The notes under the pieces were generated by a model that saw only the letters and a list, made by a program, of their open reading frames with translations, did no database searches and was not told the DNA's origin. Positions 6,466 through 60,989 of a stretch of 64,000 bases of DNA are shown here, piece after piece (positions within the stretch are counted from its first letter, which is position 1; every line of letters starts with the position of its first letter). The DNA is from Muricea muricata (Eukaryota; Cnidaria; Anthozoa; Malacalcyonacea; Plexauridae). The position numbers were made by a program, and so were the translations under genes. The stretch covers positions 49,547,379-49,611,378 of the forward strand of contig OY979716.1 in assembly GCA_963855995.1 (NCBI GenBank). Reading direction: 5' to 3'.

Positions 6466-9400
6466 ATGATTATATTATATTTCTTAGCTGTTGGGCTTTG
6501 TGTATGTACCTCTGAAAGTTCATATCACTCGTCTGGTATACATGGAATTCAAAGTAATATTGTACGTGTACATACTGCAAATATTTAAAGAGAAAAATTC
6601 CTTGGACGCAGATTAAGATGTTACTCAAACAGTTTAACATCATTTAACCCGTGTATTTTGAGTTTAGGTGGTGATATACATCCGCATCCAGGACCGAATA
6701 AGAGAGGTAAACAAACTTTAACTGTTTTATTGATTAACGCTCAAAGTCTAAAGAACAAGCTCTGTGATTTTCAAACTATGGTATATTCGAGAGACAGTGA
6801 TATTGTTGTTTGCGAAACATAGTTAACATCATTTATGTTTGATAAGGAAATATTACCAAGTGGTTATGATATTTACCGTCGTGACAGACTTAATGATAAA
6901 AGAGGTGGAGGGGTTTTAATTGCTATCAAGAGCAATATAAAATCGAAACGTTGTTGGCATTTGGAATCGGCCTGTGAAATTATTGTTTGTGAAATATATC
7001 TGTCTGAATCAACGAAGTTAATCATATGCGGTTTCTATCGACCTCCTTCAAGCAATTATGAATACTTAATGACTTTTAATAGCTCCCTCGAGAGTATTAT
7101 TCGTAGCAATTTACCTCTCGTATTATGTGGTGATTTTAATTTCCCTGAGATTAACTGGGAATGGCAAGTAGTGCCAGGGAATGAAAATTTATCAAATACA
7201 TTTTGCAATATGGTAAATGATGCTTTTTTAAGTCAAATAAACTTATTACCCACCAGGGTAACGGAAACCCCCAGCAACATTTTGGATCTAGTCTTTACAA
7301 ATGTACCAGAGCAGCTAAATGGTTTGTCGACATTTGATAGCCAATTGAACACTGATCATCTTGGTGTATCTTTCTCTGTCCGAACAGTATTGAAAAGGAC
7401 GAAATTTTCTCGTTATGTTTACAACTTTAAAAAGGCCGATTTTGTCGGACTAAGAGCGACTCTCTTGCATACACCTTTCGAAATAGCTTTTGACTGCGAC
7501 GACATTGATCAGTGTTGGGAAAAATGGCGTGACTTTTTTCTTACTACTGCTGAAATGTTTATTCCAAAGTGCAAGGTCAATGATGCTGGAGCACCGAAAT
7601 GGATCGATGGAGAAATAATTAAGCTCTCCAAGCATAAGTCCAAGTTGTGGAAAAAAGCTAAAAGAACTAACTTATTGGCGCATTGGGAAGATTATCGCAA
7701 GGCCTGCAAGCAGATAAAAACATTAACCAGAAATAAATATTGCAAGTTTCTGTTAAATATGCAAGATGAATTGAAAGATAATCCCAGAAAATTCTGGTCT
7801 TTCTATAGAACTATGGCTAAAACTGCTAGAATACCTAAAACCATGCATCTGGGCAGTGATGTAGTATCGTCGGCGCTTGCTAAAGCCTCCTTGTTTAATA
7901 GATTTTTTGCGTCTGTTTTTCAAGACTCTAATAATCAAACCCCAACAAATGATGACGATAAAGATGGTTTGTCTACAAGTGATAAACTTCGCTTGTTACA
8001 AGCAACTATTGACGATGTTCTATGTATTTTAAAGGCGATTGACACCTCTAAAGCTAGTGGGCCTGATCTTATTGCTGGACGACTGCTAAAAGAATGCGCA
8101 AATGAAATTGCACCTTCATTAACACGAATAATAAATTATTCACTTCGTATTGGTGTTTTACCAAGGGAATGGAAACTAGCAAATGTATTGCCTATTTTTA
8201 AAAAGGGGGATGTTAATGATGTCATTAATTATAGACCTATTTCACTACTTAGCTTAGTTGAAAAAGTGGTCGAACGTGTCGTCTATAATAAGTTCTATCC
8301 ATTTGTTGAGAATCGTATTTACCATCTTCAACATGGATTTATGAAAGGTCGCTCCACAGTCACCCAATTACTCGCAATTGTACATCAGCTGTCTAAATCA
8401 ATCGACGAAAGAGGACAAACAGACATTGCTTACTTGGATTTCACTAAGGTTTTTGACTCTGTTTCACATAACCTTATAATAGATAAATTATACTCGATAG
8501 GAATTAGAGGTCCTTTATTAAAGTGGTTCAGAAGTTATTTACATGATAGGAAACAACGAGTAGTGTTAGATGGTAAATGTTCTGAATGGCTTTCCGTTAC
8601 TAGTGGTGTTCCTCAGGGTTCCATTTTGGGTCCTGCTCTCTTTGTTCTTTTCATAAATGATATGCCAGATGTAGTTTCTGAGCCGAGCACACTTGCGTTG
8701 TTTGCTGACGACGCGAAATGCCTTCGTGCAATTAATGATGTTGGGGATTGTGTTGCATTACAAGATGATTTAAATAACTTGAGTGAATGGAGCGTAAAAT
8801 GGAAACTGAATTTCAATATTGAAAAATGCACCATCTCCACGATAACAAGAAAACGAAATCCCGTTTTGTCTAGTTATACCATAGCTCACTGCCCTATAAA
8901 GAGAGTTAATGAGCAACGAGATTTGGGAATACATATTAGAAGTAATGCTACCTTTAATGAACATATATACACCCAAATATGTAAAGCAAACAAAATGCTC
9001 GGACTTATTCAACGTGCAGTTTCCAGAGACAAGAGATTATTGCCAACAATGAGATCGCTGTATATTACGCTAGTCAGAAGTCATCTTGAATATGCATCGG
9101 AGGTTTGGAGTCCGAAGTCTGTTACGTTGATCAAATTAATTGAGCGAGTCCAACGACGAGCAACACATATTTTGATGCCTGAACTTGACTATAAGGAACG
9201 ACTTCGACGACTTGATTTGCTTCCTTTGCTGCATCGACGAGAAATAAAGGACTTAACTACCTTTTACAAGTTAAAAAGTGGTCTGTATAATTGTGATATT
9301 GATTCATATGTTGCTTTTTGTTCAGATACCAGGTTAAGATCAACTGCTCAGGGAAAGTTAAAAACTCCAAGATGCAGAACTGAATTGTTTAAGGCATCCT

Positions 9401-9552
9401 TCTTTAATCGAATAGTTTATCTTTGGAACAATTTGCCTGAAAATGTCAGAACATTCAGTGGCAGTGTAGGAAAGTTTAAATATTACTGTAGAGAGTTCTA
9501 TAAAACGATACCTTATGACCCGGATCGACCTTGTGCTTCCTGGGTTTCATAA
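6466..9552 (+). pseudogene. LINE ORF2: AP-endonuclease plus reverse transcriptase, two nonsense codons
   Basis: One frame runs from 6466 to 9552, broken only by TAA at 6586 and TAG at 6820. From the latter on it is open for over 900 codons. Order: hydrophobic leader (about residues 1-15), a GDIHPHPGP motif (about residue 70), an AP-endonuclease-like domain (LLINAQSL, then RGGGVLIAI, GDFNFPEINW and a TDHLGV block), then the reverse transcriptase (SGPDLI, NYRPISLL, FDSVSH, GVPQGSILGP, FADDA) and a C-terminal CR1-type tail (RVQRRATHILMPELDYKERL). It would nick DNA and prime reverse transcription at the target. TAG 6820 falls where related elements have Trp (CETWL), a single G-to-A change. Confidence 0.9.
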
Positions 9553-14430: not shown

Positions 14431-14440
14431 TGTATTCTAA

Positions 14441-15125
14441 CATAACCAAGGGTTCCCAAAGTGTACCTCGTTTACAAAAAACAGTGAAGAACTTTATGAA
14501 ATTGGCTGAAATTTTGATATGTCAACTATTTCATCGATATAAAGTGACCTTTAAAGTATTAGCCAAATTAGGTCAAAATATTAAAAAAGTTCTAATTCAG
14601 TTGCGAATTCCATTTTCATGCGTGGTCTCAATATTAGGACATAACCAAGGGTTCAGAACGTGTACCTCGTTTTTAAAAAAACAGTGAAGGACTTTATGAA
14701 ACTGGCTGGAATTTTGTTATGTCAACTATTTCATTGATGTAAAGTGACCTTTAAAGCATTAGGTCAAAATATTAAAAAGTTCTAATGCAGTTGCGAATTC
14801 CGTTTCCACGCGTCGTCTCAATATTAGGACATAACCAAGGGTTCAAAACGTGTACCTCGTTTATAAAAAAACAGTGAAGAACTTTAGCTAATAAAATTAG
14901 CTAAAATTTTAATATATCAACTATTTCACCAATATAAAGCCATGGGTAAAATGTCAGGTAAAAATACTGAATTGTTTTAATTCAGTTGAGAATTCCATTT
15001 CAATATGTTAATGTCCCTATATTGTGACATAACCAAGGGTTCACAAAGTGTACCTCGTTTTTAAAAAGCAACAAGGAACTTGGCTAAAAATTTAATATAT
15101 CAGCTCTTTCATTGATATATAGTAA
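14441..15125. repeat. Tandem array, ~195-bp unit, 3.5 copies
   Basis: The marker CATAACCAAGGGTTC recurs at about 14441, 14640, 14830 and 15028, giving spacings of 199, 190 and 198 bp. Each unit then has GTGTACCTCGTTT, an AAAAACAGTGAAG block and a TATAAAG block in the same order. Units diverge progressively, copies 3 and 4 most. The last copy is partial. Confidence 0.85.
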
Positions 15126-15274
15126 AGGTTAAACTGCCTGGGAAAGAAGTTCCTGCCTAGACTTTTCTGTCACCCAATTTTCCAGAACTAATAGACAATA
15201 AAGCTAGTTAGGCAGAAAAGCTGTCTTACATTTAAGACGAAAAAAGTATAAATTCGGGTATTTGTATATTAGTA

Positions 15275-19248: not shown

Positions 19249-19863
19249 TCATTCAAATGATTTCAACTTTCAAGTCTCAGTGAGAGTTCATTTAGTTTAG
19301 CTCTCAAGACTCAAGCTGCTACAAGCTTCGTGTCTGATGGCAAATTACATTGAACTTAACTAAAATATTTAAAATAAATGCACAAATATTTTAGTTTTGG
19401 CAAAAGCAACTAAATCTGATATATTTGTTTTCATAGTTATCAGTTCCATATTTCGTTTGTGGTAATAGTATAACAGAAAGAGGAAATAACTTACCTTGCC
19501 ATTGAATTAAAATAAAATGTCCTGTGATTTTGGCGCCATTCGAATAAACAAAAACAAAGTGATGTACTTCGTGTATGTCTGTTATGAAGCATATGAGGCC
19601 CGCATGCAGGCAGTGAGGCAGGACGCAAATTATTACAGAGCCACTGTGACAGAGCCTAAGCCTTCACATAGTTTTGTAATTGTGCTATAATAAAGCTGGC
19701 TATATTTCTTCCAACAAATTCAACTGATAACCAAAAACCCGCTTTTTTACCCAGGTAAAAGGGCCCACCTCACCATTAAATCAATGTTTACTACTGGGTC
19801 AAGCAGAGGGCCTGCTGGGGTAAATGCCCCAGTAGTTATATATAGGATAATAACCGAGTGGGA

Positions 19864-19926
19864 GGTCTTGTATTAAAATTCAAGACCGTGCGCGCAGTGC
19901 GAGGTCTTGAATTTTAATACAAGACC
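19864..19926. repeat. Perfect 24-bp inverted repeat hairpin
   Basis: The arms 19864-19887 and 19903-19926 are exact reverse complements around a 15-base GC-rich loop. Pairing extends imperfectly outwards (about 19849-19942). A related but diverged hairpin occurs at 27112-27170, on the other side of the Crypton. Confidence 0.8.
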
Positions 19927-19959
19927 GACCACGAGGTTGTTATGTTGTTTAAATAGTTA

Positions 19960-20400
19960 CCACACCCATTTTCTTTTGTTCTCAAGAGGTTTTAGATAAT
20001 TGAATGATATTAGGAGTAACCCCACAGTTTTATTCATGCTATTGTTGACGCCGTTAATGACAGTTTGGCCCATTTATGACGATTTGGCTTTTTGGTGCAG
20101 TTTGCAGCAGAGTTGGTAGATTTCATAAATAAATAAGCCAATTTTTAACAATGCTCTTTGTTTTGTTGAAGATGGTTAATTAAGGATGGCTAATTACGGT
20201 TTGGTTAATATTTATTCATAAAATCTATCAACTGTGGCTTGCAGAAGAGTTGGTAGTATTGATGAATAATCAGGCCAAACTTTTGACAATGCTCCTTGTT
20301 TTTCTTTGTGAAGGCCTTTTGTTTTTTTTTGTTTTCTTGATGGTACTAATGATAGTTTCACTTATTGATTATTCATAAATACTAGCAACCATGGTTTGCA
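19960..20400. other. Probable Crypton 5' flank
   Basis: Contains two near copies of an AACTNTGGCTTGCAG-like motif, each followed by an AGAGTTGGTAG block (about 20105-20125 and 20232-20250). No coding exon is evident. The stretch ends with a TTTGCAG acceptor-like site just before the first Crypton frame. Confidence 0.4.
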
Positions 20401-20672
20401 GGCTTGTTTTTCTTAGCATTTTTGAACATGTGGTCAGAGAACTCGGATGAGGACATTTATATCACTCAGTCGACGTTTCGCCAGGAATCGAATTTGGACG
20501 ATGTCAATGACTGGTTTCAAGATGGATCGTCGACAGATGGACAAGTGTTAAATAATAATGTGGAGAAGGAGAAAGCCACGGAAAAAGCCGCTTTGCAAAC
20601 CGCTTTGAAAACCTAATTTTCGAGGTGGAAATTCAAGCTAAGATTGATGATGCGGTTCCTAAATCGACAATT

Positions 20673-20963
20673 AATAAATCACGCAAATCCTTCGTTGGCA
20701 AAATTTGGGAGGCAGAAAGTGCTGTTCCTGGGGGTGAGGGCCCCCAGAAAAGCTGGGGAAACAAGATCAGGGTGAGAGTTAGGGCCCCCGCCGTTATGGA
20801 CCTTGAATCCCATGTCCTGACTGGGGTTCCCCACACATAAAGCGACCAAGAGATGCGAAGATCAGGACGGGGGTAGGGCTCCCGCTGTTATGGACCTTGC
20901 TCTCCTTCGCTGGTGTGTGCTTCACCGTGGGGAAGTGTGGCCATATGGACACCACTTTCTGCC
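20673..20963 (-). repeat. Ngaro-like B2 repeat (3' outer)
   Basis: Direct copy of B1. It ends at the Crypton codon ATT (20670-20672). It makes the open frame at 20625-20840 look coding, but that frame is repeat sequence after the first 16 codons. Confidence 0.9.
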
Positions 20964-21142
20964 CCGCTTACTTTATTTGACAAATAATTCATTTGTTTAC
21001 ATGTTACCTGATACATCTCACTATTATTACAAACTGTTTACTGTATAGAAGCTAATGCAACATTCTAGGTACTGGATTTCGGTAGTAGCTAATTATTGCT
21101 TTTTTTTCCTTTTTTTTTTGAGTAAAGGGTTGGGTGGGTGGG

Positions 21143-21428
21143 TTTTTCTTTTTGTGTTAACGCAACGAAGGTCAAAACCAGAATGAGTTAGGTTTAGTTT
21201 TGAGCGAGCTTTTGCTCTAGATAATCGTGACATTAGGAATGACGGTTATGAGTAGGTGCCAAAGCTAACAATGGTGGTGCCAGATAGTTAGGTGTGAGAC
21301 AGATTTTGTAGGAAATGACTTGGATTATCGCACGTTTCTATCTAACCTACTTTAAGTGATACAAGGAATTTCTTTTAAGGATGTTGCTTCATATTAAACT
21401 CAATTTATTCTTTAAATAAATTGTCCCT
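21143..21428 (-). repeat. Ngaro-like A2 repeat (internal)
   Basis: Direct copy of A1. Its end next to B1 has the same terminal sequence (ATTGTCCCT) as the outer end of A1, which would template the circular junction during replication. Confidence 0.9.
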
Positions 21429-21430
21429 TG

Positions 21431-21719
21431 ATAAATCACGCAAATCCTTTGTTGGCAAAATTTGGGAGGCAGAAAGCGCTGTTCCTGGGGGTGAGGGCCC
21501 CCAGAAAAGCTGGGGAAACAAGATCAGGGTGAGGTAAGGGCCCCCGCCGTTATGGACCTCGAATCCCATGTCCTGACCGGGCTTCCCCACACATGAAGCG
21601 ACCAAGAGATGCGAAGATCAGGACGGGGGTAGGGCCCCCGCCGTTATGGACCTTGCTCTCCTTCGCTGGTGTGTACTTCACCGTGGGGAAGTGTGGCCGT
21701 ATGGACACCACTTTCTGCC
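21431..21719 (-). repeat. Ngaro-like B1 repeat
   Basis: 289 bp, matching B2 at 20673-20963. It carries two copies of a CCCCGCCGTTATGGACCT-like motif. It follows the recombinase frame and abuts A2 with only 2 bases between. Confidence 0.9.
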
Positions 21720-22171
21720 ACTGATCGAAACAAAGTGTAGATCCCCCACGTGAAGCTTGTTTGGGGTTGGCTGGAATGTAATACTGGTAATTATTAGTAG
21801 GTGATCTGAGAAGGCAGGAAAGTACTGCCGCCAGCTGTCAAGTGGAAATCCATTTGATCCAAACCACTCAATCCCACGCAACATATGTTTTACTTCGGTT
21901 CTCAAGATTTGGTAGACTTAGAGATGGATTTCCATTCCTAAGCTAGCGTCAGGCCGATGGGTCAGATCAACTAGTAATATGTATATGGTAGTGATATTAA
22001 TGCCTGATCATTATGTTATTTACTTATTTATAGTTTTTTTCAACCTTATGGAAATTAACTATGTAGTCTATTAGCAGATAATTAGGACTATATTGTTCTC
22101 TATGAGAACTGATTGTTTCAAAATAGCTCACGGTGTTAGCACTTGCGCGAGTTTTTCAGGCACTGAGTTAA

Positions 22172-23098
22172 TCACCGTATGTGGTGTACGAATGTGGTGC
22201 AGTCGGAACGCCAGCAGCCTAGAGTTTTTATTAGCCAAGGAGGCATATAGGCGGCAGCAGCTGTTGTTGCTGCACCGATTCTAAAGCTATGTGGAGCATA
22301 ATCAGTTTCCAAGTAACCTAACATGTTCAAAAGTTCACACAGATTTGCATTTAGTATACAGCGCGACAGAGGCTGGCCGTTCTGTAACATGAAAAGAGGT
22401 TCGTCCGTCGTAGTTGAATTGCGTTGAAGGATATAATCGCGTAAGGCGATGACAGCACATACTTTCGAATTGCTTTTAGCGATTGTTAATGTAGTACCCT
22501 GGCGAAATGGGTCTGTTTTAGACTGCTTAATTCGAACTTGAATGTAATCTGGGTTGTGGATATTAGGCACAAAGGCGATGTCTTTAACTGCGAGGAAGGA
22601 TTTTGAGCTTGAATAGGTAAATTCGCTAACTCGTAGAAATCCAAAAAAGGCCAATGTAAAGGCAGCCCATAGCATGACGGTGTCAAGTTCCAGGGAGAAA
22701 GCAGGTCGTAGAAGGTCTGAAATTTGTGACAGAATTTGTATAGTTATCGGGCGGCGAGTTCGTTGTTGGGAGCTGGAAGTGCGTTTAATGCCTTTGAGGA
22801 TACGGTGTAGCTGGTACATATTGTCAGTCCGAAGAGGCATGCTTTGTTCGACGTAGAAATTCGCTATAGCTGCAAGATATAATTTTACAGTTTGATATTG
22901 AACTTTGCCTTGAAGAGATGCGACGAAATAGACCAGGTTTTCCTCTGTTGGAGCTGGGAGAAGGTTTTCCTTGGTGGCGAGGTTGTGGGCAAAGCAGAAA
23001 TCCAGGTATTGATGTACTCTAGAAGAATATGTTCTATGGGTAGAGGATGAGAGAGCTTCGCCAAGCAAAGAATTGACTTTACGGCTTAGACTCGGATC
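22172..23098 (-). pseudogene. Ngaro-like tyrosine recombinase
   Basis: The frame changes near 23090 from the RNase H frame, then reads SLLGEALSSSTHRTYSSRV, the usual start of DIRS/Ngaro recombinases. The core has GFLRVSEF (catalytic Arg), VRIKQSKTDPF (Lys), HSFRIGAATTAAA (HxxR) and LGCWRSD (Trp). The expected nucleophile Tyr in a YIR context is absent: the frame reads TTFVHHIR and stops at 22172. A TAC-to-CAC change or a nearby indel would explain this. The enzyme integrates circular double-stranded DNA. Confidence 0.88.
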
Positions 23099-24749
23099 AA
23101 GGATTCGGGAATGACGGTAGGTTGTTCTGAAGCTGTAGGGACTAGTTGACGGAAACGTTGCATCTGAAATTGGGATAAAGAGTCGGAGACTGAGTTGTCT
23201 AGCCCGGGAACATGTTGTGCGGTTAGTGTGAAGTTGTGTATTAGAGTTTGCATTGTAATTTGGCGAACTAAATCCATAATCTTAGTGACTTTGCTTGATT
23301 TTGAATTAAGGATATGAGTAACTGAAATGTTGTCGCACCAAAGTATAATGCGTTTGCCAGACCAAAGAGGGCCCCAAACTGCGCATGCGAGGTACACGGG
23401 AAAAAGCTCTTTCCATGCTATGCTTTGCTGCTCTGTATGCGCGTGAAATTGTTTTGACCAAATGCCCTGGAACCAAAGATTATTAAAGAATGCGCCATAG
23501 CCTAGTGAGCCGGATGCGTCAGTTGAGAATTCAAGCGCAGGCGAGTGTGTTGGCGCAATATCGAGAAAAATGTTAGAACTGTTCCATTGATCTGAGAAAA
23601 CGAGCCACATAGAAACGTCTTTTTGGAAAGATGAATTAAGTTTGATGTGATGATGAGGTTCGGTAACGCCGCAAGTCAGGTTTATCATGCGCTGGAGAAA
23701 AGCCCCCCTGGCACAATAACGCGACATGCAAATTGAAGCGTGCCAATTAGGGATTGCAGTTCGCGTAGAGTACAAGATTTTTTTGATTGCCAATTCTATA
23801 GCTCAACTTTTGTTCGCTCTAATTTATCCGGAGGCAGACAGGCAATCATATTTTCGGAGTTGAGAAGCACACCAAGGAATTCGAGAGATGTAGACACAGC
23901 ATAGGTTTTTGATGAAGCAATCTGAACATTTAAGTTTGTCATTAGAGTAAGCAGTTTGCATAAGGACGTCATGCAGTTAGCCCGTGGGGGCGGTTCAATT
24001 AAGAAAAAATCGTCTAAAATATGCAAAATATGCCTGATATCATAATTTGTTTTGGCAATCCATTCAATCGCATCAGAAAGTTGGTTAAAAATGTAAGGCA
24101 CGCTGCGTAGGCCAAACGGTAGGACTGTGTCGAAAAAATAAAGGCCGTTCCAGTGCATGCCTAATAGCTCCCAATCTTTTGGGTGGACCGGCACATTGCG
24201 GAAGACAGAGCAAATATCGGTTTTTGCCATGTAAGAGCCCTTACCAAGCTGAATTATTAAGTTAATCGCATCGTCAATTTTGACATATTGTAAGGAGTAT
24301 GTGTCTTTCAAAATATGATCGTTCACGCTTGTACCGGTTGCTTTTGGGTGTGATAAGTGAAAAATTGTGCGCCAGTCCGTCGAATGCTTTTTAGGAACAA
24401 CGCCAATTGGGTAGACTTGAAAATTTGGAAATGGTGGGCGTAAAAAAGGACCTGCAGTGCAACCTAAAGTGACTTCTTTTAGCAAATTTTTGGAGACAAG
24501 GTCAGGGTGATCAGCGGCAGATTTAAGATTTTTTAAAAAGCGAGGCGCGCGGGGGCCCTCAAAACCAATGCGAAAACCCTCCTGAAAGCCTTGAATTAAA
24601 TGCGAGACAAATGTAGCATTAGGATGAAATTGTAATTCGTGTTTTAGGTAAGTTACATTGACTGGTGTAGAAGTGCTAAGATTGTTAATATAAGTGTTAA
24701 CGTTCTCGTTTGGTATGGCTAGACTCCGCAGCTCTTGCATCATGCTCAA
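23086..24749 (-). pseudogene. Ngaro-like reverse transcriptase and RNase H
   Basis: The RT segment (24749-23796) shows PIGVVPKK, DWRTIFHLSHP, MAKTDICSVFRNVPVHPKDW, LPFGLRSVPYIFN and the catalytic HILDDFF box (LDD instead of YxDD, as in DIRS/Ngaro RTs). After an in-frame TAG at 23796 the same frame continues as SCTLRELQSLIGTLQFACRV and then slips frame in a run of six G near 23705. The RNase H segment has STDASGSLGYGAFF, then ILWCDNISVTHILNS and HVPGLDNSVSDSLSQ. It would copy element RNA and remove it. The TAG and the slip inactivate this copy. Confidence 0.9.
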
Positions 24750-25333
24750 TGGCGGGATGGCGGCCGACGCAGCCGGATCGATTGCAACGGTGAATGGACA
24801 TGGGTTGCTGGCGCAAGGGACCTTTCGGTTGTAGTTGCGACAGAGGTCGTCATTGGAACGTGGCGTGGATCATTGCGTATCGACGTGGTTGTCTTGGGAG
24901 GCAGGTGTTGGGGTAGCGAGGATGAAGATCCAGGAGAGACGGTTGGTTCAGGCGGGGTGTGGACACTGGACAGCTGAGGCAGGATAGCATCGCGAATCGA
25001 GGAAGAAATCAGCGACTGCAAAGTTTCCATCTGCTCGGCCGTGAAACCGTAGACATTAGGCGTAGATTCTTCAGTGACAGGTCAGGACGGTACTGTAGAG
25101 TCGGTGGGAGCAGTTGAAGGAGTTACAACTGGGGGGTTTGAAACTGCAACAGCGGATCTCGGAGCGGCGCGAAGACGAGCAATAAGAGTTCTTCTTGAAC
25201 CAGTAGGTGACAGTTGTAAGTTGTCGCAGCGTAACCGAAGAACTTCAGTAGTCAAGGTCTCCAAATTGTCTAGAGTAGGTTGTGGATCAGCACTACGAGA
25301 AGACGTTGATGTCAATCTTCTGATGCGAGGCAT
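24746..25333 (-). pseudogene. Ngaro-like gag with SAP-like motif
   Basis: It starts at ATG 25333 (MPRIRRLTSTSS). An early helix pair, LTTEVLRLRCDNLQLSPTGS followed by RRTLIARLR, resembles a SAP DNA/chromatin-binding motif. A Ser/Thr/Pro-rich region then leads to FTAEQMETLQSLISSSI and a basic end (RLRRPPSRH). An in-frame TGA lies at about 25082-25084. The stop overlaps the start region of the RT frame. Likely the structural/nucleic-acid-binding protein of the retroelement. Confidence 0.75.
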
Positions 25334-25372
25334 GATTAGTCCGTTTATAGGATGTACTGTTGCAAATTTACG

Positions 25373-25658
25373 TTTTTCTTTTTGTGTAAACGAAACGAAG
25401 GTCAAAACCAGAATGAGTTAGGTTTAGTTTTGAGCGAGCTTTTGCTCTAGATAATCGTGACATTAGGAATGACGGTTATGAGTAGGTGCCAAAGCTAACA
25501 ATGGTGGTGCCAGATAGTTAGGTGTGAGACAGATTTTGTAGGAAATGACTTGGATTATCGCACGTTTTTATCTAACCTACTTTAAGTGATACGAGGAATT
25601 TCTTTTAAGGATGTTGCTTCATATTAAACTCAATTTATTCTTTAAATAAATTGTCCCT
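25373..25658 (-). repeat. Ngaro-like A1 repeat (5' outer)
   Basis: 286 bp, the same length as A2 at 21143-21428 and nearly identical. Its outer end is at the Crypton junction. It must contain the element's promoter, since it precedes gag. Confidence 0.9.
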
Positions 25659-27111
25659 ATATAAAGAAAAATGGGCTGTTAACTTGTTCGAGAACTGGAG
25701 ACAGCAAAGAAATGAGAAAGTAAGTAATACTGGCGGTATTACATTCTGCACAATAGCTTAGAAGTTATGTCTGATGAAGAATTAAATCACTCGTTAGCAT
25801 TGTTTGTTTGTGAAGTACGAAAAGCCAATGGAAGCAAATATCCGGCAAACACCCTTCATGGTATGGTTGCTTCAATTCAGCATCATTTGAAAGGAAAGAA
25901 AAGGATTGTGAGACTATTCAACGACGATTAATTTTATTTTTTTTGAGAGATGCTTTAGATGCGATGATGAAGGAAAGTGCTTCTGATGGCCTTGGACTGA
26001 CAAAGAAGCAAGGCGAGGTTATCACGTTGGACAAAGAAGAGCAGCTCTGGAGTAAAGGGGTTCTCGGAGATTCAAACCCTCAACAATTGCTTGATACCAT
26101 TGTTTATCTGTTTGGAATTCACTTTGCTTTAAGAGGCGGTAGTGAGCATCGAAGACTGCGGTCAGAAAATTCACAAATTGTTAAAGGGAAAGATAAACGA
26201 ACTGGCTTAGAGTATTTGGAATATCGTGAAGATATATCTAAAACGAATGCTGGCGGGCTAAAAGACAGAAAGATACAAGGAAAGATCACGCGTGCATATG
26301 AGAATATAGCGGACAAGAGACGATGCATTGTTCGTCTGTATGAAAAGTACATAAATTTATGGTAAGTCTTTACCGTCAAATAAAACAGTACGTTTGTTGT
26401 TTCTAGCGGATAATATCTATTTTATTCCCGTTTATGCTTCTCTAGTCCAAACTTGGAACCTGGAGGGACAAACACATTTTATCGAAGTGCTTTAAAATGC
26501 CCAAGGTCTACGTGCTGGTATAGCAATGTGCCAGTTGGACATAACAAACTAGCTTTAACGGTGAAACGATTGTGCGGACAAGCTGAAATTTCTGGCTATC
26601 GGACAAATCATTTACTGCGGGCCACTGCTGCAACAAGAATGTATGACATGGGAATTGATGAACAGCTTATCTGCGAGAAAACTGGAGAGCAAAGTGAAGT
26701 AATCGAAAGATAATTATGATTTAATTTAAAGGTCACCGAAGCTCCGCTGTCAAGGCATATAAACGAACTTCAACAGAGCAAGAAATGAGAGTCTGATATT
26801 TTGTATGGTGTAAATGTACGAAAAAAAGCGAAAGAAGAAAGTTGCGGAAATGAGAAGTGTGCACAGGAGGAAACAGTGGAGATAGAGAGTGTTAACAAGA
26901 ATCAAAATAAGAAGCAGGCTGGGGTCTCGACAACTACAGAACAAAGTAAAATCCAGAAAGAGAATACAGATCAAGAAATTGCTGCAAAAGCTTCGATAAA
27001 CATAACGTTTAATTTTGTTTTGAAATAACTTAATATGAGCGTGTCAATATTATTTGTGTTAAGATTTGTTGAGTGGAAATGTGTGCGAGTTTAAAATTCA
27101 AGAGCTTGGAC

Positions 27112-27170
27112 AGGTTTTGAATTCAAAGTTTAAGACCCAGTCAGGGTCTTGAATTTTGAATTAAAAACCT
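27112..27170. repeat. Hairpin downstream of the Crypton
   Basis: Imperfect arms (27112-27137 and 27144-27170) share the GGTCTTGAATTTT core with the hairpin at 19864-19926. Confidence 0.65.
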
Positions 27171-27265
27171 CGAGTGAGTGTCTTCTTAGGCCCGCTCTCC
27201 CCTGTAGAAATCAAAAACCGCCCCCTGCTTTCAGAATCAGGTCTTTGGGGAAAATGCAAAACCGA

Positions 27266-27312
27266 TTGAGAACAAAAGAAAATGGATGTGGTAATTTTTT
27301 AAATAGTTAAAA
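27266..27312. repeat. Inverted copy of the segment at 19946-19990
   Basis: The sequence GAGAACAAAAGAAAATGGAT, then GTGGTAA and AAATAGTT, is the inverse of the left-flank segment TTTAAATAGTTACCACACCC plus what follows. The two copies bracket the 7.3-kb Crypton/Ngaro interval in inverted orientation. Confidence 0.65.
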
Positions 27313-27987: not shown

Positions 27988-28040
27988 TGGTGTAGGCGTG
28001 TCTTTCAGGCTGGGAGACCGGGGCTCAGATCACTGAAACT
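27988..28040 (+). repeat. Possible tRNA-derived SINE head
   Basis: The stretch TGGTGTAGGCGTGTC and, 25 bases later, GGGGCTCAGATC resembles degenerate A and B boxes of an RNA polymerase III promoter. No tRNA fold was established. It abuts the LINE fragment that follows. Confidence 0.22.
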
Positions 28041-28043
28041 GAT

Positions 28044-28930
28044 GTGGGTTTTGAACATTATATGAAATTCAAAGCACATCAAAGTTTCTATTTTAGAAAC
28101 ATTAATATAGATGAAGTTTTAAAAGCGCTTGAGAAATTAAAGACATCTACTAAGTCAACTGGACATGATATTATCCCAGTTAAGCTTAATCTGAAAGATG
28201 CATGTGATGTCGTAGCACCTTTCCTGGTTAATTATTTTCTTAGACATGGTATTTTTCCAGATGAGCTTAAGACTGCAAAAATTAATCCAATACATAAATC
28301 TGGAGATAAAAAAATTTGCAGCAATTACAGGCCAATTTCCATTTTCTCAATTGCAGCTAAACTATTCGAAAAACTTGTCTGTACACAGCTTAATTATTTT
28401 TTAATTGAAAACAATGTTCTGAGTTCTTCTCAGTCTGGTTTCCAAAAAGGCTATTCTACCGCATCAGCTCTTTTAGCAAATACGGATTCATGGTTACTAA
28501 ACATGGATGCCGGGATAAATGCTAAAATGGTGTGCTTTTCCTTGATTTAAGTAAAGTGGTTTGATACAGTTGACCATGAAATTCTTTTGAACAAATTATC
28601 TATTTATGGAGTTCAAAATAAAACCTTAGATTGGTCTAAATCACATTTGACTAATAGAATGCAATACTGCAGGGTAAGTAATGCAAGATTGTCCACAAGT
28701 TTTGGGGTTCCTTAGGGATTCAACCTTGGTCCTCTTTTATTTTTATTATATGTAAATGATAATTCGTGCTCAGCAATGTATGCAGATGACACAAATCTTA
28801 CGGTGCGTTCCGATGACATAAATAATTTGGAAGAAGCACTGAACTCTGAAATGTGCAATATTCATCCGTGGCTTTTTCAACTAAATTGACATCAAACATT
28901 GATAAAACTGAATACATGATCATTGGAACG
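28044..28930 (+). pseudogene. LINE reverse-transcriptase fragment (L2/CR1-like), second family
   Basis: The frame begins mid-element and reads NINIDEVLKALEKLKTSTKS, INPIHKSGDKKICSNYRPIS and SSSQSGFQKGYSTASALL. A frame change near 28530 leads to LDLSKV and VDTVDHEILLNKLSIYGV, then FGVP followed by a TAG, GPLLFLLYVND and MYADDTNLTV (catalytic ADD), ending at KTEYMIIGT. The endonuclease and 3' tail are missing. It differs clearly from the LINE at 6466 (YADD rather than FADD), so it is another family. Confidence 0.85.
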
Positions 28931-29555: not shown

Positions 29556-29850
29556 AAAATAACTATTTTGTCAAATTTTTATTATTAAAGATTTTTTTAA
29601 TTGGAACAATGTGTAATTTTTCATAATAAACAATAGTTATTCTATTTACACTGCATCAATAGGATGTTAAAGCCAGAGGTGTGTGTATTATATACTCTGT
29701 ATGTGTGTGCATTATTTCTGTTTTGATGAAACTGATGGCTTTAAAACAAGGACATACAGCATTACTAAATATCTTCATACTTTAGGAATGTCTAAGATAA
29801 GTTTATAACTTATCAAAATAATATGCCAAGTCAGTTCAGCAGAAGACTCT

Positions 29851-30286
29851 TTGTGATGACTGCCGCACTGCTCTAGGATCACAAGATAACACTGCTCCAT
29901 CATCTGAGTTCCTGAAATTGAAAGATAGTGGCAAATTATTCAAGCCTTCCCCCAGTGTCGTCAACATTTGTAATGAAAGCGAAAAGCGTTTTGAAAGAAC
30001 GCTGGCAAAAAATGCTGGGAAGCTTCCCCATGGCAAAGGCATACCTGAGGCAATTGCTACAGTAGTTTTAAGCACTTTAAAAGTATCATCCCTATTTACA
30101 GAACTAGATGATCACGTGTTTGATTGGACAGTGGATGACAATCATGTTTACAAGCTGATCAAGAAGATTTTAAAATGCTACTGTAAAGTCCAGCTGTACC
30201 ACTTAGGTAAAGAAACTACGGCAGATTTATCTGGTGAAAAAATTCGAAAAAAATTAGATAAGTTGGTTCTTTTCAAACACCAATGA
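29851..30286 (+). pseudogene. C-terminal part of a P-element/THAP-type transposase-like protein
   Basis: One frame reads KTLCDDCRTAL, then LKLKDSGKLFKPSPSVVNIC, RFERTLAKNAGKLP, ELDDHVFDWTVDDNHVYKLI, YCKVQLYHLGKETTADLSG and KLDKLVLFKHQ before a TGA. This is the C-terminal module found in animal P-element-like transposases and THAP-linked proteins, where it helps DNA binding or dimerisation. No upstream RNase-H-like catalytic part is present, so it is an isolated fragment. The recognition is from memory of the motif order. Confidence 0.55.
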
Positions 30287-32485: not shown

Positions 32486-33100
32486 TTTCCGTTTGCAATG
32501 ATGGTTCAACGTTTATAATCTAATATGTGAATGGTCCATTGATTGGTGATCAGAGGCACTACGACTCAATGTCCTCGAAAAGACGCAAATTTGCAGAATT
32601 TGTAACAATGTCAATGTAAAGGTACTATAGCCAAATGGCCACCACACCCCATTAGCAGCATCAGAAATCAGAAAATAATGCAGTCTCAAAAACTGTTGTT
32701 CGATAAACGTTACCTTCCTACTCCGGTTTTTTATATATAGCTCTTTCTCAGACTTTGACCACAATTCTATTGTTTTCATCTTCAGGTGTACACCTATATA
32801 ACCAATGAAAATGCAAGCATGGAAATGTGTACACTACAATGAGATAATTTTTATGATCATTTTGTAATAAGCTAGAACTAATGCACATGTACTCAATATC
32901 TTTTCATAACAATAATTTGTGAAACTGTACAACTGCAGAAACAAAGAAAAGGTGAACAGACTGCTTTGACAAGATTCTCAAGAAGCAAATGCAACTGATC
33001 GGTTGTGTCGGCTTTCATGTGCAATGCTTTCTTTAAATGGTCACAGAGACGTTGGCCTATTAGTCAAGATATTAAAACAATGAATATCATAACAAGTGCA

Positions 33101-33195
33101 CCACACCACACCACACCACACCACACCACACCACACCACACCACACCACACCACACCACACCACACCACACCACACCACACCACACCACACCACA
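33101..33195. repeat. (CCACA)n pentanucleotide microsatellite
   Basis: Nineteen uninterrupted CCACA units. It lies in a KDZ intron between the 33315 and 33056 splice sites. The His/Thr/Pro frames it creates are artefacts. Confidence 0.95.
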
Positions 33196-34848
33196 CTTTA
33201 CACTACTCTATACTAAACTGTACAAGATATAAATACAAACTTCATTATAGAGCATATACAGTATTCCAGCATGAAATACGTTATACAAATCAAGACCAAA
33301 TGCTTTGTGCTTACCAATTTGCCCCAAAGATTTCTTTCTATAGTGTAACAAAAAGTCAGTCAAGGCGTCAACTCGATGGAATAGGTTTCAACGCGATGGT
33401 GTCATTTCTTTGGTGATTTTTGAAGTTGGTCAAGGTAAGACCACATTCGCTCCATAACTTCACCGTCACTTAGCCCAAAGCCGTCCATTCTCCGACCACT
33501 GTATGACACCTTGTCAGTAAAAGGAATACAGGTTTAATTCATGGTATATTACAATAGTATATTACAATAGTATACAGCATGAACGTGGATAAAACTAAAT
33601 AATGAATATATTTTTATATATATAAAGTTAGAAATAGAAAACTTTAAAATTAAATGTGGAAAAACCTAGAGCGTATTACATGTAACTACCTTATTCGCAG
33701 CGTTTTTAAGTATAGTTAGTAAAGGGTTAAAACCTGTAGGGCTGGAAAAGGCAAAGTATAATAGCTAAATTTACAATACCTGGCACGATACTTTATGTCC
33801 ATAGCAGTGAAATGTAGGTATGGCCACCTTAACATTTTCCAACAACGCTTCCTGATTTGTTTTCTAATTATACAGTAAAAAACATACAGTAAACATTGCA
33901 GATAGTTCAATCCTTAAATTATAAATATCTCTAAAACTTGTTGTCATAAAAATAATTGGAAGAAAATATTGTGCCATTACGTTCTTGGAAGGATTGTTCA
34001 AAACTAGATTAACGCTAACCCAGACACCTAAAGTCAAGACATAACCTGCTGCTACAGTGTGGTACTCCATTTCAATAGGTCTAATCATGCAATGAAGATT
34101 TCAGTGAACCACAAAAGGCTCAACAGTTATTGTTGATGACAAATTTAGCAGCAGGTAGATGGTTGTTCACCTCACTACAAGAGGGTTGAAGATTTTGCAA
34201 ATGTTTGCATTTAATCACTAAAGTTTGTGGTACCTTAAGATGAGATTCCAATGTGCATGCTATATCATAGTACAAATATAAGTTCAAGTTCTTGTTTTTC
34301 GAACTTTCCTTCAACCATTTGAGCAAATAAACTGCATTTCCAATTCTAAAACATGCAGAGCGCAGTGTCATTCAATTGAATCTTCAACACAACATAAAAA
34401 ACATAGTTACCCTGAAAAACAGCAACTTATACTTACACTTTTCAAAAACAAGATAAGACTGTAAAATTGTTGGCTTTTTCTTAAAACCTCAAATCTTGCG
34501 TTTACAAAATGTTGTTTTTCAGAAAATAACGTACAAAGCCAAATCCGAAAAGAAATAATGAATTCCCAAACAGCATGTTTACTTACTCGTCCCCCCTTTT
34601 CAAAATAAAGAATTTTAAAGGCACTTCGTGTCTGCAGCCTGCTCCAAATATTGCGGTTTTATCTAACTTTTTGGTCTTCACCTTAGACATGAGATTTGAT
34701 CCAGCTTATAAGTTATGACAGGACACCTTGAAGGCAGGTAAATAAATTGAATGTTATTAAAATGTATGAAGACCTTGAACAATTTACAACCAATTACACT
34801 GTACATGGGTATTGTACCATCACTGAATAGCACATGATGAGTGAAAAG

Positions 34849-55594: not shown

Positions 55595-55653
55595 TACACC
55601 CATTGTTCGTTTTGTACCTATTTTGTTCAACTCCAGCCACTGTAGTCCATATA

Positions 55654-56972
55654 CACCATTTGCCCTGCATTAAGAGAAAAACTATTACGAATAACACGTT
55701 TTGCATATTCAATAGTGCGTCCCAAATATCAATAACATCAATCAAATATCAATTGTGTACAATGGGAACGTAAATAGAACAACGCTATAATTTATGCCTT
55801 TTTTGAACATTCAAATGAGTGACCCAAACAACAATCGCATGTATTGAAGAATCATTAGTGCCATACAAATAACAATAAGGAAAATTGGAAAACAATGTAT
55901 TATCAATTAACGTAGGTGCTTGTTGGGGTGTTTGTTCTTACAACCGTGTATTGTCACTCAACGAAACTGTACTGCAATGCAAAGTTCATGCAATACTGTA
56001 CATACTACAAGTTGATGGTAATCACCCTTGCTAGGCATCTGGGTAGGTACGACTGCATCAGTCGGAATCAGGCATCACACTTTCCCACAGTCATGGTGGG
56101 TAAATTTCTCTCAGCAGCAGCAATCAAAAAACGTTTGCGATATCCTCACAGGGAAATGTGTGCGTTTTGGGCAGCGTTTCTGTCATTAATCTGATTCTGG
56201 AAGAGAGGACGTGTGATGTCAGCCTTAATATTCGCTTTCAACCAGCTGATAGCTTGCTCGACTAGATTCAGAAATGGAGTGTATGGTGGCAAAGAGTGAG
56301 CATACTCGTTTCGGCGTTCAATAACATCTGCTCGATTTCGCTTGGCTGGAACTCTGTGCCTACAACAATCCATCCAAATGGTTGGCAATTGTGCTCGCGT
56401 GAACAGCCGGACGGTCTTGGAATCGTTCTCTCAATTCTGCATTGATAGCTTCTAAAGTCAACATAGGATTCTTGTTAAGGATTTCTTCGAGGCACTGTCT
56501 CATCTCTTCGTTGACTTTGATATTATTACGACCGCCACGTGGCCTTTCATCTACTCTGTTCTCTCGTATAAAGCGTGTTACAATGCCTCTTTTTACCATC
56601 AACTTGTAGTATGTAGAGTATTGCATGAACTTTGCATTGCAGTATAGTGTAGTTGAGTGAGAATATACGGATGTAAGAATAAATGCTTTAAAAAGTACCT
56701 ATGTTAATTAATAATACATTGTTTTCCAAATGATATTTGAAGTTTCCTTATTGTTATTTGTATCGCACGAATGATTCTTCAATACATGCTATTGTTGTTT
56801 AGTTCACTCATTTGAACGTTCAAAAATGGTATAAATTGTAGCGTTGTTTTATTGACGTTCCCATTATACGCAATTGATATTTGATTGATGTTATTGATAT
56901 TTGGGACGCACTATTAAATATGCAAAACGTGTTATTCGTTATCGTTTTTCTCTTAATGCAGGGCAAATGGTG
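55654..56972 (-). mobile_element. Tc1-like element with ~380-bp inverted repeats
   Basis: TA (55652-55653 and 56973-56974) flanks termini CACCATTTGCCCTGCATTAA and inverse. The inverted similarity continues through GAATAACACGTTTTGCATAT and ATTGAAGAATCATT to the block CATACTACAAGTTGATGGTA (about 56015-56035) and its inverse at 56595-56615, so each TIR is about 380 bp. The central ~560 bp holds a deleted transposase. It lies just 3' of the P2X7-C-like gene. Confidence 0.85.
56146..56626 (-). pseudogene. Tc1-like transposase, internally deleted
   Basis: The N-terminal part (56626-56360) reads KRGIVTRFIRENRVDERPRG, GRNNIKVNEEMRQCLEEILN, then ELRERFQDRPAVHASTIANH, a paired-type helix-turn-helix. 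After a jump near 56375 the frame resumes with VIERRNEYAHSLPPYTPFLN and LVEQAISWLKANIKADITRP, the end of a DDE domain (the LPPYSPxLNPxE box, with LxE here). The middle, including two catalytic acids, is deleted. Non-autonomous copy. Confidence 0.85.
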
Positions 56973-56999
56973 TAGTTAACAGTCAATAGTATTCAAAAA

Positions 57000-60702: not shown

Positions 60703-60950
60703 GGGGACAATTTATTTTTATAAAATAAATTGAGTTTAATAAGGAGCAACATCCATATTATATCCTCTAAAGATTAAGTAGATAAATATGTCTGGCAACA
60801 CAAGTAATTTCCATCAACACCTGTCTCAAGTTTACGTACCGCCTGGCTCCGGCTTTAACACATCTTCCTAAACAGACATTCCTCACTTATTAGTAATATT
60901 TACCACAAAGCATGCCCAAAACCAAAGCTAAGTCATTCTGGTTTCAAACT
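60703..60950 (+). repeat. Solo Ngaro-type A repeat, diverged
   Basis: It begins GGGGACAATTTATTTTTATA and later reads AAATTGAGTTTAATAAGGAG, CAACATCC and ends in AAGTCATTCTGGTTT, which is the inverse-oriented match of the Ngaro A repeats at 21143 and 25373, though quite diverged. No gag or RT follows. It lies exactly where the Penelope frame breaks. Confidence 0.7.
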
Positions 60951-60989
60951 CCGTGGCGACATCACAAACAACACAAATATGCGAGTTTT

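What the first reader, a model, noticed from the sequence alone, without database searches (positions are those of the whole stretch)
20428..27028. Ngaro-like retroelement nested precisely inside a Crypton recombinase exon
Two different tyrosine-recombinase mobile elements are nested in opposite orientation. Removing 20673-25659 restores the Crypton N-terminal frame across the joint (VPKSTI followed by YKEKWAVNLF) with no duplicated or lost host base. That gives base-level insertion evidence for a retroelement that leaves no target duplication. The near-identity of A1/A2 (about 5 differences in 286 bp by eye) suggests recent activity, while the Crypton host is older and broken.
Basis: partly seen in the sequence, partly recalled or inferred. 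Interest (0 to 1): 0.85.

Follow-up and report, generated by a model that had tools for sequence, protein, structure and literature searches.

The report
Ngaro retrotransposon nested in a Crypton
A decayed jumping gene of the Ngaro kind sits cleanly inside the coding part of another broken jumping gene of the Crypton kind; the nesting is real and easy to read, but it looks like ordinary behaviour of known elements.

Summary
On the minus strand, about 25657-20674, lies a Ngaro-type retroelement: split direct repeats A1-ORFs-B1-A2-B2 around gag-like, RT, RNase H and tyrosine recombinase (YR) frames. It interrupts a plus-strand Crypton reading frame whose QRICH1 and DUF3504 domains lie to its right. 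Joining the flanks keeps the frame, VPKSTI-YKEKW.

Corrections. (1) The cut is not fixed to the base: three cuts give the same length and frame. Read against the internal junction (TTG), the two ends carry different 3-base cores, TTA and TAT. (2) A1/A2 differ at 4 of 286 sites, B1/B2 at 11 of 289 plus one gap, 6 of the 11 being CpG transitions. Gag has an in-frame stop, RT and RNase H lie in different frames, and the YR frame ends without a tyrosine in its last 15 residues, so "recent activity" is weakly supported. (3) Integration without target duplication is the published DIRS model (PMC3266345), and Ngaros inside other mobile elements are published (PMC8547959).

No genome is held, so no empty allele could be sought. 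Verdict: new member of a known kind.

The parts
25372..25657 (-). A1, 5' terminal repeat of the Ngaro-type element (element sense is minus)
   Evidence: 98.6% over 286 bases to A2; outer end TAAATTGTCCC occurs 3 times in the window, 0.03 expected
25082..25417 (-). gag-like frame with SAP-like stretch, closed by a stop at 25084-25082; same frame is open again to 24746
   Evidence: ORFs; SAP E = 0.0037, 17.3 bits, below the cut-off of 23.9; the continuation 24749-25081 has no Pfam match at E <= 1
23796..24869 (-). reverse transcriptase frame
   Evidence: RVT_1 E = 7.1e-10, above cut-off; closest solved chain by sequence is 4ol8 'Reverse transcriptase/ribonuclease H', E = 2.7e-06, then 7q5b Ty3
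23086..23802 (-). RNase H frame, in a different frame from the RT
   Evidence: RT_RNaseH E = 0.00087, 19.9 bits, below the cut-off of 24.8; frames
22172..23281 (-). tyrosine recombinase frame, no tyrosine in its last 15 residues
   Evidence: Phage_integrase E = 0.00039, 20.7 bits, below the cut-off of 27.1; XerA-type NF040815 E = 2.3e-06, 27.4 bits against a cut-off of 220; sequence
21431..21719 (-). B1 repeat
   Evidence: 11 substitutions and 1 gap over 289 aligned positions to B2
21428..21430 (-). internal B1/A2 junction core, TTG on the plus strand; expected copy of the circle junction
   Evidence: role inferred from the published model
21142..21427 (-). A2 repeat, directly next to B1
20674..20963 (-). 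B2, 3' terminal repeat
20671..20673 (.). left border core, TTA on the plus strand
25658..25660 (.). right border core, TAT on the plus strand
20428..20670 (+). host Crypton, left part, in two frames; ends in VPKST(I)
   Evidence: frames; no Pfam match for 20428-20613 at E <= 1; open 38 codons up to 20672
25661..25930 (+). host Crypton, QRICH1-type N-terminal domain of the recombinase, in two frames
   Evidence: PF25561 E = 6.2e-13 for the second frame's piece alone; 1e-15 for the two frames joined, right of the joint only
25814..26365 (+). host Crypton, DUF3504 domain frame
   Evidence: PF12012 E = 5e-25, above cut-off
26414..26790 (+). host Crypton, integrase C-terminal block, in two frames
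   Evidence: Phage_integrase E = 3.3e-05, below cut-off, for 26414-26710; E = 7.5e-08, above cut-off, for the two frames joined

Best explanation
A Ngaro-type YR retrotransposon copied itself through RNA into a DNA circle whose joined ends are still recorded in its internal B1/A2 junction (GTCCC-TTG-ATAAA on the plus strand). A tyrosine recombinase crossed that junction with a site in the recombinase frame of a resident Crypton, so the circle opened into the frame without duplicating the target. Shown here: split-repeat anatomy, gene content, opposite orientation, frame continuity of the Crypton, and the three junction sequences. Inferred from the published DIRS model: RNA copy, circle, YR catalysis. 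Inferred by me: the right core (TAT) is the old target's and the left core (TTA) descends from the circle's TTG. The copy has since decayed and now looks immobile.
For: A1-ORFs-B1-A2-B2 layout with B1 and A2 abutting; RVT_1 7.1e-10 and weaker gag, RNase H and integrase matches in the expected order; DUF3504 5e-25 and QRICH1 domain in the host; open frame across the joint; the 60.7 kb remnant ends its A repeat at the same base; published Ngaro layout and DIRS1 integration model (PMC8547959; PMC9210276; PMC3266345; passages of each).
Against: Three of the four Ngaro domain matches are below Pfam's cut-offs. The border cores TTA and TAT differ from each other and from TTG, whereas the DIRS1 model asks for an identical target core. 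No empty allele and no other full copy were available. The YR frame has no tyrosine at its end, so this copy's own enzyme, as it stands, could not have acted.
Confidence: 0.87

Rival explanations
1. The host is not a Crypton transposon but a gene or pseudogene derived from one (QRICH1/KIAA1958-like), struck by the Ngaro.
For: DUF3504 and QRICH1 are the domains of such genes (PMC3212892, passages). The mobile ends of the host were not found; Cryptons are described as lacking terminal inverted repeats, yet 46-base inverted arms flank this host.
Against: Motifs of the recombinase's catalytic residues can be read in the host's pieces (LRGGSEH, NHLLR, HRSS...AYKR, my reading), and the joined C-terminal block matches Phage_integrase to profile position 167 of 172, whereas the paper's abstract says the domesticated domains lack most catalytic residues. 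Intact genes of this kind would not be broken in several frames.
Confidence: 0.1
2. The inserted element belongs to another YR retrotransposon group with split direct repeats (PAT or VIPER) rather than Ngaro.
For: PAT and VIPER elements also have A1-B1-A2-B2 repeats (PMC4157794; PMC6681497; passages). No tree could be built for lack of reference sequences.
Against: No methyltransferase match in the five element frames scanned at E <= 1, which speaks against PAT; VIPER is described from trypanosomatids.
Confidence: 0.07
3. The junctions are an assembly mis-join between a Ngaro and a Crypton.
For: Repeats of about 290 bases can mislead assemblers; no reads were available.
Against: Both borders fall at natural ends of the element and the Crypton resumes in frame beyond it.
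Confidence: 0.02

Closest known systems
Ngaro retrotransposons (Cafeteria burkhardae Ngaro types 1-4, PMC8547959; Xenopus DIRS-53_XT, PMC9210276; passages)
   Same: A1-[ORFs]-B1-A2-B2 split direct repeats; gag-like, RT/RNase H and YR frames in one orientation; insertion inside another mobile element is known for Cafeteria Ngaros (in virophage elements).
   Different: Host is a Crypton-type element; the copy is about 5 kb, against 'typical length of about 6 kb' in Cafeteria; no room for, and no match to, the extra hydrolase frame described in amphibian Ngaros; the genes are damaged.
DIRS1 integration model: circle with a 3-base junction, no target duplication (PMC3266345, passages)
   Same: Internal junction of abutting repeats; no evident target duplication; three-base core between the ends.
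   Different: DIRS1 has inverted, not split direct, repeats; here the cores at the two borders and at the internal junction are three different triplets (TTA, TAT, TTG).
Cryptons and Crypton-derived DUF3504 genes such as QRICH1 and KIAA1958 (PMC3212892, passages)
   Same: DUF3504 and QRICH1 domains, integrase C-terminal block.
   Different: Broken into several frames; flanked by 46-base inverted arms of unclear meaning, while Cryptons are described as lacking terminal inverted repeats. Solved QRICH1 is only a weak sequence match (9hjt, E = 0.14 and 0.86).

Membership tests
Ngaro | split direct repeats A1-ORFs-B1-A2-B2 | tested here: met
Ngaro | RT, RNase H and YR domains in the same orientation | tested here: met
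   RT above Pfam's cut-off, RNase H and integrase below it
Ngaro | no methyltransferase domain (present in DIRS and PAT) | tested here: met
   no such match at E <= 1 in the five element frames scanned
Ngaro | catalytic tyrosine of the YR | tested here: not met
   no tyrosine in the last 15 residues of the frame; read as decay of this copy, not as a feature of the family; no fold could confirm the place (pLDDT 37.7)
Ngaro | position in an RT tree with reference elements | not testable with these tools
   no eukaryotic reference sequences held; scans gave no relatives
Ngaro | integration without target site duplication | tested here: inconclusive
   three net-zero cuts fit; no empty allele
Crypton | DUF3504-type tyrosine recombinase | tested here: met
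   PF12012 E = 5e-25; QRICH1 domain
Crypton | catalytic tetrad R-H-R-Y | tested here: inconclusive
   motifs readable in pieces in different frames (my reading); integrase match to profile position 167 of 172 on a joined piece
Crypton | no terminal inverted repeats; 4- or 6-base terminal direct repeats | tested here: inconclusive
   inverted arms 19948-19993 and 27258-27303, 89% complementary over 46 bases, may or may not be its ends, so short terminal repeats could not be sought

The most novel reading that the evidence does not exclude
The Ngaro recombinase chooses targets by a short, imperfect overlap with its own circle junction (circle TTGATAAA against putative target TATATAAA, 6 of 8) and leaves a different core at each end. 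That would relax the identical-3-base rule of the DIRS1 model and make Ngaro targeting resemble bacterial YR elements that tolerate mismatched overlaps (Tn916, recalled).
Probability: 0.15. Interest if true: 0.45.

Novelty: new member of a known kind. Interest (0 to 1): 0.2.

Why it matters
One copy shows both borders and the internal record of the circle junction of a Ngaro-type element inside a coding frame, so the empty site can be predicted to within three stated alternatives. Reading more copies this way could settle the target rule of the little-studied Ngaro recombinases. On its own, one nested and decayed copy changes little.

Tried and rejected
Recent activity: rejected as stated. B1/B2 differ at 11 of 289 positions against 4 of 275 for A1/A2 (Fisher p = 0.12, not significant). 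Without CpG transitions the figures are 5 of 289 and 3 of 275, compatible with one age.

Pfam test of the joint: the joined piece, the right part alone, and joints with one residue less or more score alike (57.3, 58.3, 57.6 and 57.4 bits; 54.2, 55.6, 54.5 and 54.3 bits with a shorter linker), because the QRICH1 model starts right of the joint. Uninformative. The first joined piece, without the second frame, had no match.

Searches found no stretch; one search found 5 stretches, none confirmed as a relative. One search gave one locus (L001) and ten (L002-L011). Against these 11 loci the element's DNA had no match at E <= 1e-3, the six window proteins none at 0.01, and the Crypton pieces only matches with E >= 0.12; treated as chance. 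The one genome-contig scan found nothing. Phage records gave no RT match. No Rfam family at gathering score and no tRNA.

Fold of the YR without an alignment: mean pLDDT 37.7, discarded; no fold search was run. PDB search with the YR: one match, E = 0.91, a myosin light chain kinase, taken as chance.

Second copy as a test of the overlap reading: the 60.7 kb remnant has core CTT followed by AAACGATAAT, unlike ATAAA. This counts against that reading, though the remnant is 33% diverged.

Full report
What is there. The window looks like eukaryotic DNA rich in transposon remnants (inference); no genome is held for it. Between about 20674 and 25657, on the minus strand, lies an element of about 5 kb bounded by split direct repeats. 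In element sense the order is A1 (25657-25372), open frames, B1 (21719-21431), a three-base core (21430-21428), A2 (21427-21142), a 178-base spacer, B2 (20963-20674). The frames match a SAP domain (E = 0.0037), reverse transcriptase (7.1e-10), RNase H (0.00087) and phage-type integrase (0.00039). Only the reverse transcriptase match passes Pfam's cut-off, so for the others the order and the anatomy carry much of the weight. The integrase frame also matches the NCBIfam model NF040815 at 2.3e-06, far below that model's cut-off. No methyltransferase match appeared at E <= 1 in the five element frames scanned. This is the published Ngaro layout (PMC8547959, PMC9210276 and PMC4157794, passages).

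What it sits in. On the plus strand, right of the element, lie a DUF3504 domain (E = 5e-25, 25814-26362) and an integrase C-terminal block (26414-26710, E = 3.3e-05, below cut-off). A QRICH1-type domain begins immediately right of the insertion (E = 2e-15 on the joined piece, 1e-15 on the right part alone; profile position 3 on). On the left the frame ending in VPKSTI is open for 38 codons; on the right the frame starting YKEKW is open for 33. DUF3504 is the recombinase domain shared by animal Cryptons and the genes derived from them, among them QRICH1 and KIAA1958 (PMC3212892, passages). The host has further frame breaks on both sides. It was there before the Ngaro, as the nesting shows; whether it was already broken then cannot be told.

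The joint. In plus orientation the internal junction is AAATTGTCCC-TTG-ATAAATCACG, the right border AAATTGTCCC-TAT-ATAAAGAAAA, the left border AAATCGACAA-TTA-ATAAATCACG. A diverged A repeat elsewhere in the window (60968-60704, 67% over 286 aligned columns) ends at the same base, AAATTGTCCC-CTT. TAAATTGTCCC occurs three times in the window, at those three A ends, against 0.03 expected. This supports GTCCC as the true end. Pfam cannot judge the joint because the QRICH1 model starts right of it.

Mechanism. In the published DIRS1 model a circle joined at a three-base sequence recombines with an identical genomic sequence, giving no target duplication; in the part of the table I saw, the first and last trinucleotides of an element are not always the same (PMC3266345, passages). 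I apply that model by analogy: the B1/A2 junction records the circle junction, the recombinase crosses it with the target, and the circle opens. The right core TAT is most simply the target's own and the left TTA a one-base derivative of TTG; this is inference. Circle TTGATAAA and putative target TATATAAA agree at 6 of 8 positions; 1.2-1.3% of 8-mers of the window outside the element do as well or better, before allowing for the choice of cut. One insertion does not make a rule, and the 60.7 kb remnant does not show the overlap.

Age and state. A1/A2 differ at 4 of 286 sites. B1/B2 differ by 11 substitutions and one gap over 289 positions; 6 of the 11 are transitions in a CpG context, as expected if the GC-rich B repeats were methylated (inference). 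Setting CpG transitions aside leaves 5 of 289 and 3 of 275, consistent with one moderate age. Gag has an in-frame stop, RT and RNase H are in different frames, and the YR frame has no tyrosine in its last 15 residues. The copy looks immobile now, so its insertion predates that damage or used an enzyme made elsewhere.

Known or new. [quoted passage not shown] I saw no Ngaro-in-Crypton nest in the listings of six searches of the open-access library, which showed 20 of 41, 5 of 5, 20 of 116, 16 of 16, 12 of 36 and 10 of 118 papers; the papers listed were not read for it, and subscription journals are mostly missing. I file this as a new member of a known kind with low interest, and keep the mismatched-core reading as the boldest one not excluded.

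Noticed in passing
19948-19993 and 27258-27303: Inverted arms of 46 bases, 89% complementary, lie outside the host Crypton frame on both sides. They could be terminal inverted repeats, which Cryptons are said to lack, or two copies of another repeat.
   Followed up: partly
19847-19943: Near-perfect hairpin of 97 bases, DNA folding z-score -11.6; a second palindrome of 59 bases lies at 27112-27170.
   Followed up: partly
60704-60968: Diverged remnant of the element's A repeat in opposite orientation, 67% alike, same outer end; none of the element's gag, RT, RNase H or YR frames was found beside it by tblastn in the window.
   Followed up: partly
6823-9552: Frame of 909 residues with endonuclease (E = 1.6e-11) and reverse transcriptase (2.5e-30) domains: a non-LTR retrotransposon with a long open frame.
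   Followed up: no
29822-30286: Frame matching the C-terminal domain of THAP9 transposase, E = 1.4e-05.
   Followed up: no
27996-28550: Short reverse transcriptase fragment just downstream of the host Crypton, RVT_1 E = 4e-08.
   Followed up: no
55652-56021 and 56593-56974: Long inverted repeat, about 88% over 382 aligned columns, possibly the ends of another DNA transposon.
   Followed up: no
14440-15145: Tandem array with a period of about 190 bases.
   Followed up: no
33099-33196: CACCA repeated 19.6 times without a mismatch.
   Followed up: no
22001-26000: Strong G over C skew on the plus strand, 0.22-0.24, and higher GC (0.43) across the Ngaro element than in the window around it.
   Followed up: no
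20102-20302: Two direct copies of about 64 bases, 81% alike, upstream of the host Crypton frame.
   Followed up: no
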